Below, piece after piece: positions 1-9,142 of a stretch of DNA of 33,727 bases. A model generated the notes under the pieces. The model ran no database searches. It saw nothing but the letters and a program-made list of their open reading frames with translations, and was not told the origin of the DNA. Within the stretch, counting starts at the first letter, position 1. Each line of letters starts with the position of its first letter. The stretch lies in the IMG/VR virus record IMGVR_UViG_3300025570_000056, positions 1 to 33,727 of that record; one strand, given 5' to 3'. A program made the translations under genes and the position numbers. The DNA is from a virus.

Positions 1-1218
1 TGTTAGTTTAAAGGTTTTTCCTTTAAATTTAAAGACCACTCCTTCTGTTGGGATGATCGACTCAATACCACCAATTCCCTCTAGTCTTTTTAGTTCTTTT
101 TCAACCTTTTCAATTTGAGTAAGGTCGCCATTCTTTTTAATCTTGCCAGCTTCAGTTCTAATCTGATTATGTAATCTTGCTTTCTCAGCATCTGGATTAG
201 CAGCTACAAAATTAGAAGCGTTCTTTAAAACATCTGCACCTAACTCTAAAAATAGATTCTCAAAAGGTAAAATGTTTTCTTTATACTTCTTATTTCTTTG
301 ACCATCAAACTCTTTAACAGCCTTATTTTGTTCCGGGGTTAATTCCTTCTTTAATGCAGTTAACTTAAGTGTCTTCTTATCTAAGTAAGCCCATCTTAAA
401 AGTAAACCCTCTTTATGTGCAGGTTCTAAATCCGCAAAGTTCTCTTCGATCTGACCTCTCCACCACATCTCGTGATACATTTTAACCTCATCTTGATCTG
501 ATAGACTATAAGTATCTCTTAGTTTATTTATCGCCTTTTCATAATAGCCGACTCTCTCGTCAAAGTTAACGTCTTTAGCTAACTTTAAAATTTGAGGGGG
601 AATTATTGTAAACGTCTTTTGAACATCTGACTTTAATTCTTTAAGTGCTTTAACTAGTTCTCCAGCAACGTTTTGCTTTCCAGTTTGATTACCTTCACCA
701 TCAGTCTCTATAATACCATGAAATTGAATAACATCTCTGTCATAATAGATAACATTAGGGTTTTTAGAGTAAATTAGTTCCATATTAACGAAATTCAATC
801 CGTTCGCGAACATTGATTGATCCTTAAGCGCTGGGAGCGCCTCTGCTAGATCTTTAGCAGCAAAGATATATGTTTCTTCAACCAGCTGTGAGGCATGGCC
901 AGTGAACATCTTAATGATACCATTTAGATCTAGTGGATTTATCATTTGCCCTTTATTTCTGGCAAACATTGCTTGACCATCTTTTACAGTTGCAAATAGG
1001 TTTTGACCATCAGTCTTTTCAGTTGCAGCCTCTTCGAAATCTAACCCACCTTGCAATGAAGATTTAACAATAGTCTTAAAATCTGCAAAAGTTAATGAGT
1101 GGTCATCGAAAGGGTGCATCATGTGTCCTGCTGCTCCACCTTCAAATACGAAATCCTCCAAGTTGTTCACCTGGAGTTTCTCGTTTAAAAATTCTGTAAA
1201 ATTAGTGTATATCTTCAT
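1..1218 (-). CDS. Ligase/capping-type covalent nucleotidyltransferase, truncated by window edge
   Basis: This gene starts at the ATG at 1218 and stays open for 406 codons to base 1, so its stop codon lies outside the window. The translation shows the signature of the covalent nucleotidyltransferase superfamily (RNA/DNA ligases, capping enzymes). Motif I is EKTDGQNL with the candidate nucleophile Lys68. A following FARNKG resembles the conserved Arg/Gly motif, NMELIYS is a motif III-like segment, and EGVVFKFKGK is a motif IV-like segment at the edge. Motif V is probably just beyond. Family knowledge predicts lysine-NMP formation and sealing or capping of nucleic acid; the substrate cannot be told. 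The N-terminus (MKIYTNFTEFLNE) resembles the capsid-targeting peptides of T4 internal head proteins and has a Leu-x-Glu cleavage-like site. It follows the 577-aa gene by 20 bases and probably shares its transcript. Confidence 0.72.
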   Translation of the reverse strand, partial: MKIYTNFTEFLNEKLQVNNLEDFVFEGGAAGHMMHPFDDHSLTFADFKTIVKSSLQGGLDFEEAATEKTDGQNLFATVKDGQAMFARNKGQMINPLDLNGIIKMFTGHASQLVEETYIFAAKDLAEALPALKDQSMFANGLNFVNMELIYSKNPNVIYYDRDVIQFHGIIETDGEGNQTGKQNVAGELVKALKELKSDVQKTFTIIPPQILKLAKDVNFDERVGYYEKAINKLRDTYSLSDQDEVKMYHEMWWRGQIEENFADLEPAHKEGLLLRWAYLDKKTLKLTALKKELTPEQNKAVKEFDGQRNKKYKENILPFENLFLELGADVLKNASNFVAANPDAEKARLHNQIRTEAGKIKKNGDLTQIEKVEKELKRLEGIGGIESIIPTEGVVFKFKGKTFKLT

Positions 1219-1238: not shown

Positions 1239-2972
1239 TTATCCTAATGATGCAGTTAGTGCGCCGACAGCAGCACCATAGTCTTCACCATGCTTAGACA
1301 ATAAACCGTCTACAACTTCTTGTGCTTTTTCTTCATCAAATTTATCTCCAAATGCTTTTCCTAAAACAGCGAATGCATACTCTTTAAAATCTTCGTCAGA
1401 TTTAACTTCAGCTTCATTTACTGTTGGAGCTTCTACTGTATTAGCAGATTCAACATATAGGTTTACATACCTGCTACCTTTTTCAGAGTAAATTGAAGTG
1501 ATTTTAAAGTCACCATCAATTTTATTACCAGTATCTTTTTTATACCAATCTGCATAATAAGCTTTAAAGTATAAGTTTGGTTCTAGTTCTCCAAAGAAGT
1601 GTGATAATTTACCAATAAAAAACTGAGCTGATGGATAATAAGTTGTTATATCCGCTTTAGTTTCAGCATCTAAAACTCCTTTATCAAAATCTTTTACAAA
1701 TTTAGCCTCAGTAACTTCTTCAGTAGCTTCTTCTTCAACTTCGTCTTCTTCAAGTTCTTTAGCTAATTCAATTGCAGCCAATGCCTGAGATACTTTACCT
1801 TCTTCAACTTCTTCAACTCCTTCTTTAATAACTGGGAATTTCTTACCGTTAAATTCAAATTCTTCAGCATCTTCTTCGATCGCCTTAGCTCTTGCAGCTA
1901 AAAATGCATTACCTTCGTTCATTACAGACTCATTAGCCCATATTAATTCAAATGCATCTACAATTTTTTGAGCAGTATCACTATGTCCGAATCCATCTAA
2001 GAATAAAGCCATACCTTCAACAATACCAATACCTGACCATCCTGCAGCGTTTGCCATGAATGCTCCTTTATCGTCTAATAGATTAATGATTGATTTTTTA
2101 CCAACTGGAACTGTCATTCCACCAAGGTTATCAATCTTTACCATTACAGTTGCAAGCTTACCTTTAATTACTTTACTCACTGGTTCTCTATAAGAGTGGA
2201 AGTTAGCATCTGTTAAAGATTCTGCTAGCATATATTTACATACTCCTAAAAGAATACCAGGTGCTGCTAAAGCAGGATGATCCATAAAGAATTGCTCTAA
2301 AGATTTTGCTACTTTCTTAGCATCTCTTGCATTACCTTTACTTGGTTTAAATGATTCATTAATTATCATAGATTCAAATGCAGGAACTAAATCGTAACTG
2401 TCATAAACATCAACCATGTACCATTTAGAATCTCTTTCAGAATATAGGTAGATGAATTCAGCTCCGCCGTTATTAGCAGCGTCTTTTACAAACTTCTCAG
2501 TATCTTTCATATTCCCGTCAGTAGTGGTCTTGTCGCCGTAGAATTTAATATCGTCTACATTTGCTTCTAGACCTGAACCACCCCCTTTCTTCAGTAGTAA
2601 GTCTACTGCCTTTCCATCTTTGTAACCCTTTTTAATTGTAGGTAACATGTGGTCTGGGTAACCATCATAGTGCATATACACTGTTGAGATTTTTCCGTTC
2701 TTTTTAATTTTACCGATTTGAGATCTTGTGCCCTCTTCTATAATTGCTATTGATTCAGAGATTTCAGAAGCACCTAGCTTTCTAAAAAACTTATTTCTAT
2801 CTTCTTCGTTAAGGTCTTTTATAGACGTAACTCCAAATTCAGCTAGCAAGGTTTTAAATTCGTATGCTGCATCTTCACGAGCAGATTTTTGTTCTTCTTC
2901 TAACTTTGCAGTTGCAGCTATTTTAGATGCATTTGCATAGTCTTCGAAAGATTGTAGTTTTAGTGAACCCAT
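1239..2972 (-). CDS. Phage protein with HYDGYP domain, 577 aa
   Basis: I do not recognise a function. The N-terminal 80 residues are helical and charged. Residues 98-145 contain VYMHYDGYPDHMLP followed by a GYKDGKAVDLLLKKGGGSGLE stretch, which resembles a domain I recall from uncharacterised phage proteins (xYxHWDGYxxG type). The middle (about 230-350) is mostly helical. An acidic linker around 390-425 is rich in Glu and precedes a 150-residue C-terminal domain. IIEEG at 78-81 fits the Ile/Leu-x-Glu consensus cut by T4-type prohead proteases, so a head-associated role is possible but speculative. The start is the ATG at 2972; the gap to uvsW carries the GATATATAATA motif 32 bases upstream, suggesting that a new transcript begins here. 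The ligase-like gene follows. Confidence 0.6.
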   Translation of the reverse strand: MGSLKLQSFEDYANASKIAATAKLEEEQKSAREDAAYEFKTLLAEFGVTSIKDLNEEDRNKFFRKLGASEISESIAIIEEGTRSQIGKIKKNGKISTVYMHYDGYPDHMLPTIKKGYKDGKAVDLLLKKGGGSGLEANVDDIKFYGDKTTTDGNMKDTEKFVKDAANNGGAEFIYLYSERDSKWYMVDVYDSYDLVPAFESMIINESFKPSKGNARDAKKVAKSLEQFFMDHPALAAPGILLGVCKYMLAESLTDANFHSYREPVSKVIKGKLATVMVKIDNLGGMTVPVGKKSIINLLDDKGAFMANAAGWSGIGIVEGMALFLDGFGHSDTAQKIVDAFELIWANESVMNEGNAFLAARAKAIEEDAEEFEFNGKKFPVIKEGVEEVEEGKVSQALAAIELAKELEEDEVEEEATEEVTEAKFVKDFDKGVLDAETKADITTYYPSAQFFIGKLSHFFGELEPNLYFKAYYADWYKKDTGNKIDGDFKITSIYSEKGSRYVNLYVESANTVEAPTVNEAEVKSDEDFKEYAFAVLGKAFGDKFDEEKAQEVVDGLLSKHGEDYGAAVGALTASLG

Positions 2973-3004: not shown

Positions 3005-3015
3005 TATTATATATC
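3005..3015 (-). promoter_or_regulatory. GATATATAATA motif, copy 1
   Basis: Minus-strand GATATATAATA lies 32 bases before the ATG of the 577-aa gene, at the very 3' end of uvsW. It is identical to copies upstream of the 64-aa, 780-aa and 2737-aa genes. The sequence is similar in kind to the T4 late promoter box (TATAAATA) but not the same. A candidate phage promoter that separates the replication genes from the following genes. Confidence 0.45.
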
Positions 3016-4515
3016 CCCTTCAAATGTGACATTTTTTATCTCAAACGGGAACTTCTGTTCTCGATAGATTTTTTGTCTAGCTTTTGAATGCCTAATAAGG
3101 TAATTATCCCAATCAGGAGACGATAAGTCGTCTACAAAATCTATAATATTTACATCCGTTTTTGACTTATGTTTTCTTAGTCCTCTACCGATAGACTGTC
3201 TAATAATCACTTCTGATTTAAACGATTCGGTAAAGAATATATTATGTATCTTGTTAATTGATATACCAGTTGAAAATGTACCATAAGATGCTACAATGAT
3301 AATTTCAGCGCCTGCTTCCATTTTCTTTTTATACTCTTCTCTAATATCTTTATCTGTATTACCGTCTACATAGTAAACATTCTTTTCAGACTCTTGGCGC
3401 AATTTCTCATAAATCTTTTTACCATGTTCAATCCTATGGAATAGGACAAGACCATTACCCTTAACTCTGGAAATAATACTGCAAATAAATGCAAGCCTAC
3501 CTGGCGACTGTATAACATAATTACTTTCAAATTTATAGACATCTTTACTTTCATATCTGTTTTGTGACATTTCTCTAAAAGCATTTTTAGTACTTTCAGC
3601 AGCATAATCCATTTTTATTACTTTTACTTTACACCCTGCAATAAAACCTTCTTCTTGTAAAAAGTTCGCACTGACCTCTGTAATTACAGGACCAGTATAA
3701 GCCATAAGTGTTAATCTATCTAGGCTACCAGCTTTTGGAATTGTACCTGACATTCCAAATCTATAGTTAGCAGCTGTGCATTTTTGTAAGATAGTTTTAA
3801 TAGATTGAGATTTAGCCTTATGTGTTTCATCGATAAGTACTGCATCAAATTGTTGGAAATATTCTTTATCCTTTTTAACTAGGGATTGATATGTACCGAT
3901 TACTACGTTTCTACCCGGTCTAATCTTTTGACCAGAATAAATCTGTTGTACTTTAATTTTAGCTTGGTTTCTCCAGTTATAGTCTTGAAAATCTTCTGAA
4001 CCCTGAACAACAAGTGAAACATTAGGTACAATAAATAGTACTCTACCTGCCTTTTGTTTTTCTAGTAGGTATGATATTACCATAAATGAGATTAGAGTTT
4101 TACCAGCCGATGTAGCCAACTCACTTAGACAATTTCTAAATTTAAGTATATTATATGCTGCTTCAATTTGATAGTCTCTAGGTTGCATCTCTGAGCCATC
4201 AAAGAAATCCATTGCCCACTCTTCAAAGTCTGCAGCTTTTATATTAGTATCAAACAGTCTTGTAATGCCATTTAGTTTAAGCTCGTATTTATACTGCTTA
4301 CACATATTCATTACCTCTCGCCATAGACCAGATGGAATCCATTTATCATCTTTAATATACGAGATGTAACCATCCCATAAACCCTTTTTAACAAGGGGAT
4401 GAAACCTCCAAGATTCAATACGTCTATTTAATGTAATGTTAAGTTGTTCAACTTCCATTTCAGACGCCTCGTCTACACGCAGGAACTGTTTGTTATCTGT
4501 TAACGTTAATTCCAT
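3007..4515 (-). CDS. uvsW: UvsW-like RNA-DNA/DNA helicase
   Basis: This is a superfamily 2 helicase of 502 residues, almost exactly the length of T4 UvsW (about 503). Visible motifs in order are a Q-like RDYQIEA at 113-119, Walker A ATSAGKT at 134-140, motif II DETH at 229-232, motif III SGT at 256-258, and motif VI RQSIGRGLRKH near 439-449. The N-terminal 100 residues form a separate domain as in T4 UvsW. In T4 this enzyme unwinds R-loops and branched structures, promotes branch migration and fork regression, and shifts replication from origin-dependent to recombination-dependent start. It lies 7 bases after the UvsY-like gene, as expected for a recombination operon. Assignment to SF2 is firm; the UvsW name rests on length, motif spelling and neighbours. 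Confidence 0.92.
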   Translation of the reverse strand: MELTLTDNKQFLRVDEASEMEVEQLNITLNRRIESWRFHPLVKKGLWDGYISYIKDDKWIPSGLWREVMNMCKQYKYELKLNGITRLFDTNIKAADFEEWAMDFFDGSEMQPRDYQIEAAYNILKFRNCLSELATSAGKTLISFMVISYLLEKQKAGRVLFIVPNVSLVVQGSEDFQDYNWRNQAKIKVQQIYSGQKIRPGRNVVIGTYQSLVKKDKEYFQQFDAVLIDETHKAKSQSIKTILQKCTAANYRFGMSGTIPKAGSLDRLTLMAYTGPVITEVSANFLQEEGFIAGCKVKVIKMDYAAESTKNAFREMSQNRYESKDVYKFESNYVIQSPGRLAFICSIISRVKGNGLVLFHRIEHGKKIYEKLRQESEKNVYYVDGNTDKDIREEYKKKMEAGAEIIIVASYGTFSTGISINKIHNIFFTESFKSEVIIRQSIGRGLRKHKSKTDVNIIDFVDDLSSPDWDNYLIRHSKARQKIYREQKFPFEIKNVTFEGDI

Positions 4516-8088: not shown

Positions 8089-8790
8089 TTAGTCCGGCAA
8101 ATTTTCCCCTAGTTGCTGAAGCAAATAATGATTAAGGAACCAAGCGTCGACTAGATCATCAAATGGTTTCGGGACTTTTTTAACCTCATCACCTATATCA
8201 TTTACACAATACTTAAATAAAGAAGTCTTAGCTAACTCTGGACTCTCTACTATATTATTTAAGAAAGCAACCCAAAGAGCTAACTTATTCATATTCCCTT
8301 TACCAGCATGTTTCTTAATTGTAGTAGGTGCAACGGTCAGTAAATTTTTGACCTCGAGTCTATTAATCATTTGTTCTTTAAGGATCGCAGCTCCCGCTGC
8401 CATGTCAATCATATTATTAGTTCCCATTTTAGAACCGTATGACGTACCTTCGAAAGCAATATGATAATCTTCTTCTGTGTTTGTTATTCCTAATATCAGA
8501 TTAATTATATCATCTGCAGTTTGGATATATCTTTTAATCTTTGCAAATTCGTTTTTAGAGTAATCTCCGACTGAAGATTTCCAATCAGGTTGATGAACAA
8601 GAGTTACATCTGAAAATGTACTTATTTCTTCTTGTCTTCGCTGTTCGGCTTTTGTGCCAGAACCAGCTTTAATATAGGAGATAAAGTGATATTCATTCGT
8701 GTCAGATTGCCAGACACAAATACCAGGGGAATTAAGCGAGAAGTCAACTGTAACTAGATTCAATTTAGATTCTTTTACCCATCGCAGCAC
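8089..8790 (-). CDS. RuvC-like Holliday-junction/branch nuclease
   Basis: This is a protein of about 233 residues with the RNase H-like resolvase layout of the RuvC family. First acidic residue: Asp16 in LVTVDFSLNSPGICVW. Second: Glu114 in HIAFEGTSYG. C-terminal acidic cluster: Asp211/Asp212 and Asp215 in PFDDLVDAWFLNHYL. APTTIKKHAGKGNMNK at 154-169 matches the conserved basic segment before the last helix in RuvC-like proteins. The likely role is cutting branched DNA before packaging, the job done in T4 by the unrelated gp49 endonuclease VII. The ATG start at 8790 overlaps the upstream gene by 26 bases. A TTG at 8763, one base after that gene's stop, is an alternative that still keeps the first catalytic Asp. 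Confidence 0.75.
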   Translation of the reverse strand: MLRWVKESKLNLVTVDFSLNSPGICVWQSDTNEYHFISYIKAGSGTKAEQRRQEEISTFSDVTLVHQPDWKSSVGDYSKNEFAKIKRYIQTADDIINLILGITNTEEDYHIAFEGTSYGSKMGTNNMIDMAAGAAILKEQMINRLEVKNLLTVAPTTIKKHAGKGNMNKLALWVAFLNNIVESPELAKTSLFKYCVNDIGDEVKKVPKPFDDLVDAWFLNHYLLQQLGENLPD

Positions 8791-9142
8791 CTAGAGCAGC
8801 ACCGACTAATCTGGAAGTTAATAAATCGTAGAAGATACCTTTCTGAATACCAAGAACTTTACAGATCATTTTGCCTACGGATTTTCCTAATGCAAAACCT
8901 GCAAGACCACCAAAGATAGAACCTAAAAGTCCTTCATTAACAAGTCCCTCTTCTAATCTATCTAAATCAAAAGAACCATCTTCGTTTGCAAATTGTTGAG
9001 CAAACTGTTCTAGTGCAAAATCAACCTTATCTTCTAAATCTTGAGTCCACTCTGATTGTAAACCTTCTTGTAAAAGTTTCATGTCAGTCTTAGTTAGCTT
9101 TTGCTCAACTAAGTATTCATTAAATGTTTTAGTATCTTTCAT
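8765..9142 (-). CDS. Glycine-zipper protein with capsid-targeting-like N-terminus, 125 aa
   Basis: This is a 125-residue unrecognised protein in three parts. The N-terminus, KTFNEYLVEQ at 5-14, closely resembles the capsid-targeting peptide of T4 internal proteins (MKTYQEFIAE) and contains Leu-Val-Glu, a prohead-protease-like site. Residues 20-70 are acidic and helical, with further LQEG and LEEG sites. The C-terminal half has two glycine-zipper hydrophobic segments, LLGSIFGGLAGFALGKSVGK (72-91) and LVGAALGAAMGK (112-123), which could insert into or pass a membrane. It follows the tail-tube-like gene by 14 bases. An injected head protein that acts on the host membrane is an attractive inference; a holin-like or minor structural protein is an alternative. 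GATATATAA lies only 3 bases before the start codon. Confidence 0.55.
   Translation of the reverse strand: MKDTKTFNEYLVEQKLTKTDMKLLQEGLQSEWTQDLEDKVDFALEQFAQQFANEDGSFDLDRLEEGLVNEGLLGSIFGGLAGFALGKSVGKMICKVLGIQKGIFYDLLTSRLVGAALGAAMGKRI

What the first reader, a model, noticed from the sequence alone, without database searches (positions are those of the whole stretch)
1..1218. A ligase/capping-family nucleotidyltransferase placed after a late-like motif, not in the replication block
EKTDGQNL (Lys68), FARNKG, NMELIYS and EGVVFKF form a credible series of covalent nucleotidyltransferase motifs, but the overall sequence does not look like T4 DNA ligase, RnlA or RnlB. The motif IV-like segment comes unusually late (after 390 residues), with a long helical insert around 170-370. 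It follows the 577-aa gene, which has a late-like motif. It may be a distinct phage subfamily.
Basis: partly seen in the sequence, partly recalled or inferred. Interest (0 to 1): 0.55.

Follow-up and report, generated by a model that had tools for sequence, protein, structure and literature searches.

The report
Phage RNA-ligase-like enzyme tagged for capsid
This marine T4-like phage gene encodes an unrecognised relative of RNA ligases that carries what looks like a capsid-entry tag, so the phage may pack the enzyme in its head and inject it with its DNA.

Summary
The minus-strand gene at 1-1218, cut 17 residues short by the window edge, is a covalent nucleotidyltransferase of the RNA-ligase fold: model pLDDT 87, the 37 best Foldseek rows all ligases or capping enzymes, best VIA Z 9.6. 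Lys68 and motifs I, Ia, III and IV are invariant. No Pfam, PHROG or NCBIfam model recognises it, and the III-IV spacing is 140-177 residues longer than in T4 Rnl1 or Rnl2. It differs from an ordinary ligase in four ways. (1) It starts with a tag (MKIYTNFTEFLNE) like T4's capsid-targeting sequence (MKTYQEFIAE), followed by a conserved (V/I/L)xE|GG site. Two phage records with relatives carry 27 such N-terminal tags, mostly on unrelated proteins. Eight of nine host records encode T4-type prohead protease and Gp23. (2) The next gene, just outside the window, joins an Rnl2-like ligase fold to an NMN-adenylyltransferase-like domain and ends in a similar tag. (3) In a sister clade the enzyme is fused to a domain of that superfamily, once also to a poly(A)-polymerase/CCA-type head. 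(4) Motif V has an invariant Thr where Rnl1 and Rnl2 have a second Lys. Best reading: a head-packaged, injected RNA-end-repair enzyme. Fold ~0.95, packaging ~0.75, RNA sealing ~0.45. All inferred from sequence.

The parts
1..1218 (-). Ligase-like nucleotidyltransferase gene, 406 of about 423 codons; the 3' end lies beyond the window
   Evidence: relatives of 98% identity end 17 residues later
1180..1218 (-). Capsid-targeting-like N-terminal tag MKIYTNFTEFLNE (residues 1-13)
   Evidence: 72 of 82 distinct N-termini have the core pattern; compare T4 IPII/IPIII; tag recurs on unrelated proteins
1135..1149 (-). Conserved VFE|GG (residues 24-28), candidate second prohead-protease site
   Evidence: (V/I/L)xE before GG in 112 of 112 distinct proteins in which the site was found; lies in a segment of pLDDT < 50
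1000..1020 (-). Motif I, EKTDGQN, Lys68 (residues 67-73)
   Evidence: invariant
949..966 (-). Motif Ia-like FARNKG, Arg87
   Evidence: R87 invariant; in register with Rnl1 in hhalign
769..786 (-). Motif III, NMELIY, Glu147
   Evidence: E147 invariant; aligned with the Rnl1 motif III
715..732 (-). Motif IIIa-like VIQFHG, Phe166
64..672 (-). Helical insert between motifs IIIa and IV (about residues 183-385), with invariant or near-invariant W253, R275, K281, K313, N315, E320
   Evidence: secondary structure of the model; conservation
31..45 (-). Motif IV, EGVVF (residues 392-396)
   Evidence: invariant E392, G393
1..12 (-). Motif V-like FKLT (residues 403-406): K404, with an invariant T406 where Rnl1/Rnl2 have a second Lys
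   Evidence: register by spacing only
1239..2972 (-). 577-aa gene upstream, conserved neighbour; begins MGSLKLQSFEDY
   Evidence: homologue in 87 of 90 distinct relatives with enough flank; phrog_1987, unknown function
3007..4515 (-). UvsW-like helicase, conserved neighbour
   Evidence: phrog_16 E 7e-88; homologue in 75 of 75 loci with enough flank

Best explanation
The gene encodes an ATP- or NAD-dependent RNA-ligase-family nucleotidyltransferase that the phage makes late, draws into the prohead through its N-terminal tag, trims with its gp21-type protease and injects with the DNA. In the cell it would form a covalent nucleotidyl-Lys68 adduct and seal or adenylylate RNA ends, most likely tRNAs cut by host defence nucleases. 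It would work with the protein of the next gene (an Rnl2-like ligase fold joined to an NMN-adenylyltransferase-like domain). Shown by computation: the fold, motif conservation, tag, neighbour and fusions. Inferred: packaging, cleavage, injection, nucleotide used and RNA substrate. Likelihoods: fold 0.95, head packaging 0.75, RNA-end sealing as the activity 0.45.
For: Fold: confident model (pLDDT 87.3, pTM 0.82); the 37 best of 50 Foldseek PDB rows are all RNA ligases, DNA ligases or capping enzymes; the 50 VIA rows shown are all ligases, best Naegleria RNA ligase Z 9.6 (185 aligned, 3.9 A), T4 Rnl1 8.7, T4 Rnl2 8.1. hhalign to Rnl1 puts motifs I, Ia, III and IIIa in register, E 0.02. Catalytic set invariant in 115 distinct sequences apart from gaps. 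Packaging: N-terminus MKxxxxFxEFLxE in 72 of 82 distinct N-termini, against MKTYQEFIAE in T4 IPII and IPIII. In two records 13 of 236 and 14 of 185 ORFs (>= 80 aa) carry the tag N-terminally against 1.5 and 1.8 expected from internal windows; with the tag cut off, the 27 bodies give 6 cross-hits: 3 pairs between the two records, and one set of three mutually similar proteins, two of them in one record. Gp21-type protease and Gp23 in 8 of 9 host records each. Published: ten residues of IPIII suffice for head targeting and carry the processing signal (PMC9026906, passages seen). RNA theme: next gene has an Rnl2 fold (Foldseek E 7.5e-8) plus an NMNAT domain (Z 14.9); one fusion carries a poly(A)-polymerase/CCA-type head, E 1.5e-29; tRNA genes in both records examined.
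Against: No virion proteome of any member was seen. The sequence-profile links to Rnl1 (probability 2.3%) and Rnl2 (0.1%) are not significant, and Foldseek's best PDB E-value is only 0.011. T406 replaces the second motif V Lys, so standard three-step ligation is not assured. There is no C-terminal domain after motif V, unlike T4 Rnl1, Rnl2 and DNA ligase. The next gene's ligase domain often lacks the KxDG motif. Nine or ten of about 82 distinct N-termini miss the tag pattern. The gp23 cleavage site of the marine phages aligns only loosely with T4's. No end-healing enzyme was looked for beside it. The protease and Gp23 were not found in one of nine records, G004.
Confidence: 0.5

Rival explanations
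1. Injected DNA nick or end sealer: the enzyme is packaged, but works on the phage's own DNA as it enters (sealing nicks or protecting ends) before new ligase is made.
For: Same packaging evidence. It sits beside UvsW-like, primase and SSB genes (UvsW in 75 of 75 loci). DNA ligases share the fold (Z 5.3 to 7.3).
Against: The best RNA ligases rank above all DNA ligases (Z 8 to 9.6 against about 5 to 7). The chain ends about 17 residues after motif V, so the OB domain that DNA ligases carry there (recalled) is absent. The RNA-type partners (Rnl2 fold, poly(A)-polymerase head) point to RNA.
Confidence: 0.17
2. NAD-linked counter-defence or capping: the ligase fold and the NMNAT-like domain act as a pair in NAD chemistry, for example rebuilding NAD+ or using NMN/NAD to modify RNA 5' ends, rather than joining RNA strands.
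For: Next gene in 87 of 90 distinct members with enough flank, 70 of 87 within 75 nt; 15 fused members contain a GRFQP HIGH-type motif. NMNAT is the best structural match of that domain and archaeal NMNAT among its best profiles, E 3.6e-8. Phage NAD+ rebuilding is known (PMC9503650, passages).
Against: HIGH-superfamily domains have many substrates and PPAT scores nearly as well (Z 13.8 against 14.9). The archaeal NMNAT score is far below that model's curated cut-off, 33 of 181 bits. No NadV or Nudix partner was sought.
Confidence: 0.2
3. Structural or assembly protein: a ligase fold kept as a scaffold, as T4 RnlA (annotated RNA ligase 1 and tail fibre attachment catalyst) has a second role in assembly; the N-terminal sequence would be a generic late-protein tag.
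For: T4 record annotates RnlA that way. The tag pattern also appears N-terminally on a small ORF between portal and prohead protease in one record, G005 165325-165681. T406 in motif V could mean lost catalysis.
Against: K68, D70, G71, R87, E147, E392 are invariant, which an inactive scaffold would not need. T4 RnlA, RnlB and gp30 carry no tag.
Confidence: 0.13

Closest known systems
T4 RNA ligase 1 (RnlA, gp63)
   Same: Nucleotidyltransferase core, KxDG, N(M/F)E motif III and the stretch after it in register; motif IV to first motif V Lys 12 against 13 residues; VIA Z 8.7
   Different: No C-terminal domain after motif V; III-IV spacing 245 against 68; second motif V Lys is Thr; carries a capsid-type tag that RnlA lacks
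T4 RNA ligase 2 (RnlB)
   Same: Core fold (Z 8.1); motifs I and Ia in register
   Different: hhalign E 0.43; III-IV spacing 245 against 105; no C-terminal domain
Naegleria gruberi RNA ligase (Rnl5 type)
   Same: Best structural match, Z 9.6; nucleotidyltransferase domain is the last domain of the chain
   Different: No N-terminal OB module (recalled for the Naegleria enzyme) in the phage protein; the helical insert is extra
T4 internal proteins IPII/IPIII and Alt (packaged, injected)
   Same: IPII and IPIII begin MKTYQEFIAE; T4-type protease and Gp23 in the host records
   Different: None is a ligase; packaging of this family is not shown
Polyvalent proteins of phages and plasmids (PMC5512222)
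   Same: Multidomain, thought to be injected with the DNA; phage ones lie near late genes (passages seen)
   Different: In the passages seen, no ligase or HIGH-type nucleotidyltransferase is among their domains; the standalone form here is single-domain

Membership tests
Covalent nucleotidyltransferase (ligase/capping) superfamily | KxDG lysine motif plus motifs Ia, III, IV conserved | tested here: met
   K68, D70, G71, R87, E147 in 114 of 115 (one gap); E392, G393 in 112 of 115 (three gaps)
Covalent nucleotidyltransferase (ligase/capping) superfamily | Core fold | tested here: met
   on a predicted model
Covalent nucleotidyltransferase (ligase/capping) superfamily | Motif V with two lysines (KxK) | tested here: inconclusive
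   K404 with invariant T406; Rnl1 K240/K242 and Rnl2 K225/K227 invariant; register by spacing, not by a residue-level structure alignment
RNA ligase 1 (Rnl1) | Significant profile match to Rnl1 | tested here: inconclusive
   hhalign E 0.02, probability 2.3%, motifs in register
RNA ligase 1 (Rnl1) | C-terminal domain after motif V | tested here: not met
   chain ends about 17 residues after motif V
RNA ligase 2 (Rnl2) | Significant profile match and C-terminal domain | tested here: not met
   hhalign E 0.43; chain ends about 17 residues after motif V
ATP-dependent DNA ligase / mRNA capping enzyme | OB domain after motif V | tested here: not met
   no residues left for it
RNA ligase (activity) | Adenylylation and sealing of RNA ends | not testable with these tools
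   needs biochemistry
T4-type capsid-targeted internal protein | N-terminal targeting-like sequence ending in a protease-like site | tested here: met
   (72 of 82 distinct N-termini); compare
T4-type capsid-targeted internal protein | T4-type prohead protease in the same genomes | tested here: met
   8 of 9 records
T4-type capsid-targeted internal protein | Presence and processing in virions | not testable with these tools
   needs mass spectrometry

The most novel reading that the evidence does not exclude
A virion-delivered RNA-repair machine: marine T4-like phages pack two RNA-ligase-fold proteins, one joined to an NMN-adenylyltransferase-like domain, into the head by short capsid-entry tags and inject them with the genome, so that RNA repair (or NAD-coupled end modification) starts before any phage gene is expressed.
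Probability: 0.4. Interest if true: 0.82.

Novelty: new variant of a known kind. Interest (0 to 1): 0.62.

Why it matters
The known phage RNA ligases (T4 Rnl1/Rnl2) are made in the infected cell (recalled). One carried in the virion could act on defence nucleases that cut tRNA at the first moment of infection. The family is common in ocean phage contigs (at least 586 in one capped scan) but matches only 3 of 50,697 phage records, so it has gone unseen. The tag found here also gives a simple sequence rule for listing other proteins that such phages may inject, which makes their takeover sets testable.

Tried and rejected
Rejected: naming it a DNA ligase, capping enzyme, Rnl1 or Rnl2. Rejected: the late-promoter argument. 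Led nowhere: PDB sequence search with the family profile (nine rows, best E 0.077, unrelated); hhalign of the two neighbouring ligase-like proteins with each other (E 0.43); hhalign of the downstream protein with Rnl2 (E 0.48, wrong region) and with Rnl1 (E 0.086), although its model matches Rnl2; T4 gp23 alignment in the marine records, where the cleavage site is ambiguous. Papers: seven searches gave no paper on a packaged or capsid-targeted RNA ligase in their listings; I saw search listings plus passages of PMC3012670, PMC9026906, PMC5694885, PMC5512222, PMC9503650, PMC7824862 and PMC13282480, no whole text. Four stretches of the phage T4 record served as yardsticks; one search held no gene I needed. 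Whether the insert is a known fold is therefore open.

Full report
The gene. The open frame at 1-1218 on the minus strand reads 406 codons and leaves the window. Relatives of about 98% identity end 17 residues later, at 423 aa. No Pfam or PHROG model matches the window protein above noise, and the full-length relative matches no Pfam or NCBIfam model and no PHROG better than E 0.2.

How common it is. A single-protein scan of viral contigs gave 88 relatives (80 kept). Bacterial and archaeal genome contigs gave four loci, all on metagenome-assembled contigs. Among 50,697 phage records only three match: Microcystis phage Mel-JY01 and two uncultured huge phages.

Fold. An alignment of 49 sequences gave a model of the 423-aa L005 protein with pLDDT 87.3 and pTM 0.82. 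Against the PDB, Foldseek's E-values are modest (best 0.011), but the first 37 of the 50 rows shown are all ligases or capping enzymes; row 38 is a proteasome. VIA rows shown are all ligases: Naegleria RNA ligase Z 9.6 (185 residues, 3.9 A), T4 Rnl1 8.7, trypanosome editing ligase 8.5, T4 Rnl2 8.1; DNA ligases mostly 5.3 to 7.3. Profile comparison with Rnl1 aligned motifs I, Ia, III and IIIa in register with E 0.02 but probability 2.3%; with Rnl2 E 0.43. So the superfamily is secure from fold plus motifs, and the closest family is probably Rnl1-like but not proven.

Active site. In 115 distinct sequences K68, D70, G71, R87 and E147 are the same in 114 (one gap), E392 and G393 in 112 (three gaps), K404 in 112 with one Arg and two gaps, T406 in 112 (three gaps). 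In Rnl1 K240 and K242, and in Rnl2 K225 and K227, are both invariant. By spacing (E392 to K404, 12; Rnl1 E227 to K240, 13), T406 stands where the second lysine should be. From motif III to IV there are 245 residues against 68 (Rnl1) and 105 (Rnl2). The extra stretch is helical and has its own conserved residues (W253, R275, K281, K313, N315, E320). The chain stops about 17 residues after motif V, so there is no OB or other C-terminal domain.

The tag. Standalone members begin MKxxxxFxEFLxE(K/R). The pattern [FYW][LIVM]xE occurs in the first 22 residues of 72 of 82 distinct N-termini; a slightly different count, which also allowed Ala in the second place and D, Q, K or T in the last, gave a match in 72 of 81, ending in Glu in 67 and in Asp in 5, none in 9. 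T4 IPII and IPIII begin MKTYQEFIAE. The literature passages seen state that ten residues of IPIII suffice for head targeting, with residues 4 and 7 for targeting and 8 and 10 for processing (PMC9026906). A second conserved site, (V/I/L)xE|GG, is present in 112 of 112 distinct proteins in which it was found, in a segment predicted to be disordered.

The tag is a genome-wide system. In a 212-kb and a 170-kb record, 13 of 236 and 14 of 185 ORFs of at least 80 aa have it at the N-terminus, against 1.5 and 1.8 expected from internal windows (14 of 2253 and 17 of 1770 windows). A looser earlier pattern gave 15 of 286 and 16 of 224. Examples are MKKIKLFEQFIAE, MKHIKLYEDFINE and MKYLKLFEQFLLE. Some hits look like chance matches (for instance MYKNRLSDYIGDT and MDYGKEFEKYAMS). 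With the tag removed, the 27 bodies give six cross-hits: three pairs between the two records, and three hits that tie two proteins of G002 and one of G005 together. T4 controls: IPII and IPIII are hit; IPI, Alt, gp67, gp68, gp21, gp22, gp24, RnlA, RnlB and gp30 are not. Peptidase S77 (gp21 type) and Gp23 are each found in 8 of 9 host records; G004 lacks both. In Mel-JY01, gp23 QLISE|A lines up with the T4 site FLTE|A; in the marine records the region has KLYE|D but the alignment is loose.

Neighbours. In the window the order is SSB, primase, (small genes), UvsW-like helicase, 577-aa gene, ligase-like gene. Of 100 distinct standalone proteins, 90 have at least 1500 nt of 3' flank and 87 of those have the same next gene, 70 of 87 within 75 nt; the three misses (L155, L161, L162) are 5'-open fragments that group with the fused clade. 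The 577-aa homologue is upstream in 87 of 90 with enough flank (misses L109, L118, L145), and UvsW in 75 of 75 loci, not deduplicated.

The next gene (L005:7272-9128, 619 aa; outside the window). Its model (pLDDT 83.5, pTM 0.59) has an N-terminal domain closest to T4 Rnl2 (Foldseek E 7.5e-8) and a C-terminal domain closest to NMN adenylyltransferase (Z 14.9, M. jannaschii, residues 422-598); PPAT is close behind (13.8). The archaeal NMNAT model gives E 3.6e-8 but 33 bits against a cut-off of 181; Pfam CTP_transf_like 6.8e-9. Its motif I varies (EKIDG, EKIQA, EKIAA), and profile comparison with Rnl2 failed. It ends in a tag-like TFEQFI.

Fusions. In 15 loci the ligase-like domain is part of a 595-1907-aa protein that contains a GRFQP HIGH-type motif (lengths). 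Pfam CTP_transf_like was found at E 0.0085 or better in the nine such proteins scanned, four of them above its curated cut-off. L166 also has a poly(A)-polymerase head (1.5e-29) and RNA-binding domain, and L004 a ParB-like domain (4.4e-4, below its cut-off). Many of these begin with a short stretch ending in (L/I)xE. A poly(A)-polymerase/CCA-type domain is encoded elsewhere in 5 of 9 records, and 12 and 15 tRNA genes lie in the two records examined.

Mechanism. The best-supported reading is a capsid-targeted, injected RNA-ligase-type enzyme. Fold, motif conservation, tag, neighbour and fusions are computed. Packaging, cleavage, injection and RNA substrate are inferred. The RNA target is favoured by the RNA-ligase ranking, the second Rnl2-like domain and the CCA-type fusion. 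DNA sealing, NAD-linked chemistry and an assembly role remain open.

Novelty. Reviews of jumbo-phage RNA repair, NAD systems and polyvalent proteins (passages of PMC7824862, PMC9503650, PMC5512222) describe phage RNA ligases, NMNATs and injected multidomain proteins separately; I saw no description of this combination in those passages or in the listings. I class it as a new variant of a known kind.

Noticed in passing
window 8765-9142, minus strand: A 125-aa ORF begins MKDTKTFNEYLVEQ, a tag like that of the ligase-like protein; ORFs at the matching place in both long records (G002 106688-107056, G005 125588-125956) are tagged too by the looser pattern, only the G002 one by the stricter.
   Followed up: partly
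window 1239-2972, minus strand: The 577-aa neighbour carries phrog_1987 (unknown function, E 6e-16) at residues 81-192 and starts MGSLKLQSFEDY, tag-like but without a clear LxE; several xxE sites follow. It may be packaged too.
   Followed up: no
G001-G003 and G005-G008 (loci L171-L177): The prohead protease domain (Peptidase S77) lies in open frames of 606-831 aa, much longer than T4 gp21 (212 aa), so the protease seems fused to other parts.
   Followed up: no
L205-L207 (G005 about 129931-133306, 147460-150638, 152937-155460): UvsW-like, ribonucleotide-reductase-like and RecA-like genes of G005 look interrupted by inteins (ends such as HNYFANGLNVSNC and NHNFYGDDILVHNC); read by eye only.
   Followed up: no
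L166:835-6555: A 1907-aa protein joins ParB-like (by eye), poly(A)-polymerase head, HIGH-type and ligase-like domains; the contig is filed as a Flavobacteriales MAG but is probably phage.
   Followed up: partly
L148-L160, L163-L167: Between the HIGH-type and ligase-like domains many fusions carry a conserved DDGPxxFY...AExLG domain of unknown kind (seen by eye).
   Followed up: no
G002 106203-106661 and 115376-117220: Tag-like sequences also occur at C-termini (LLLFEQFIDKH; MTFEQFVKKD), which would be an unusual place for a capsid-targeting signal.
   Followed up: partly
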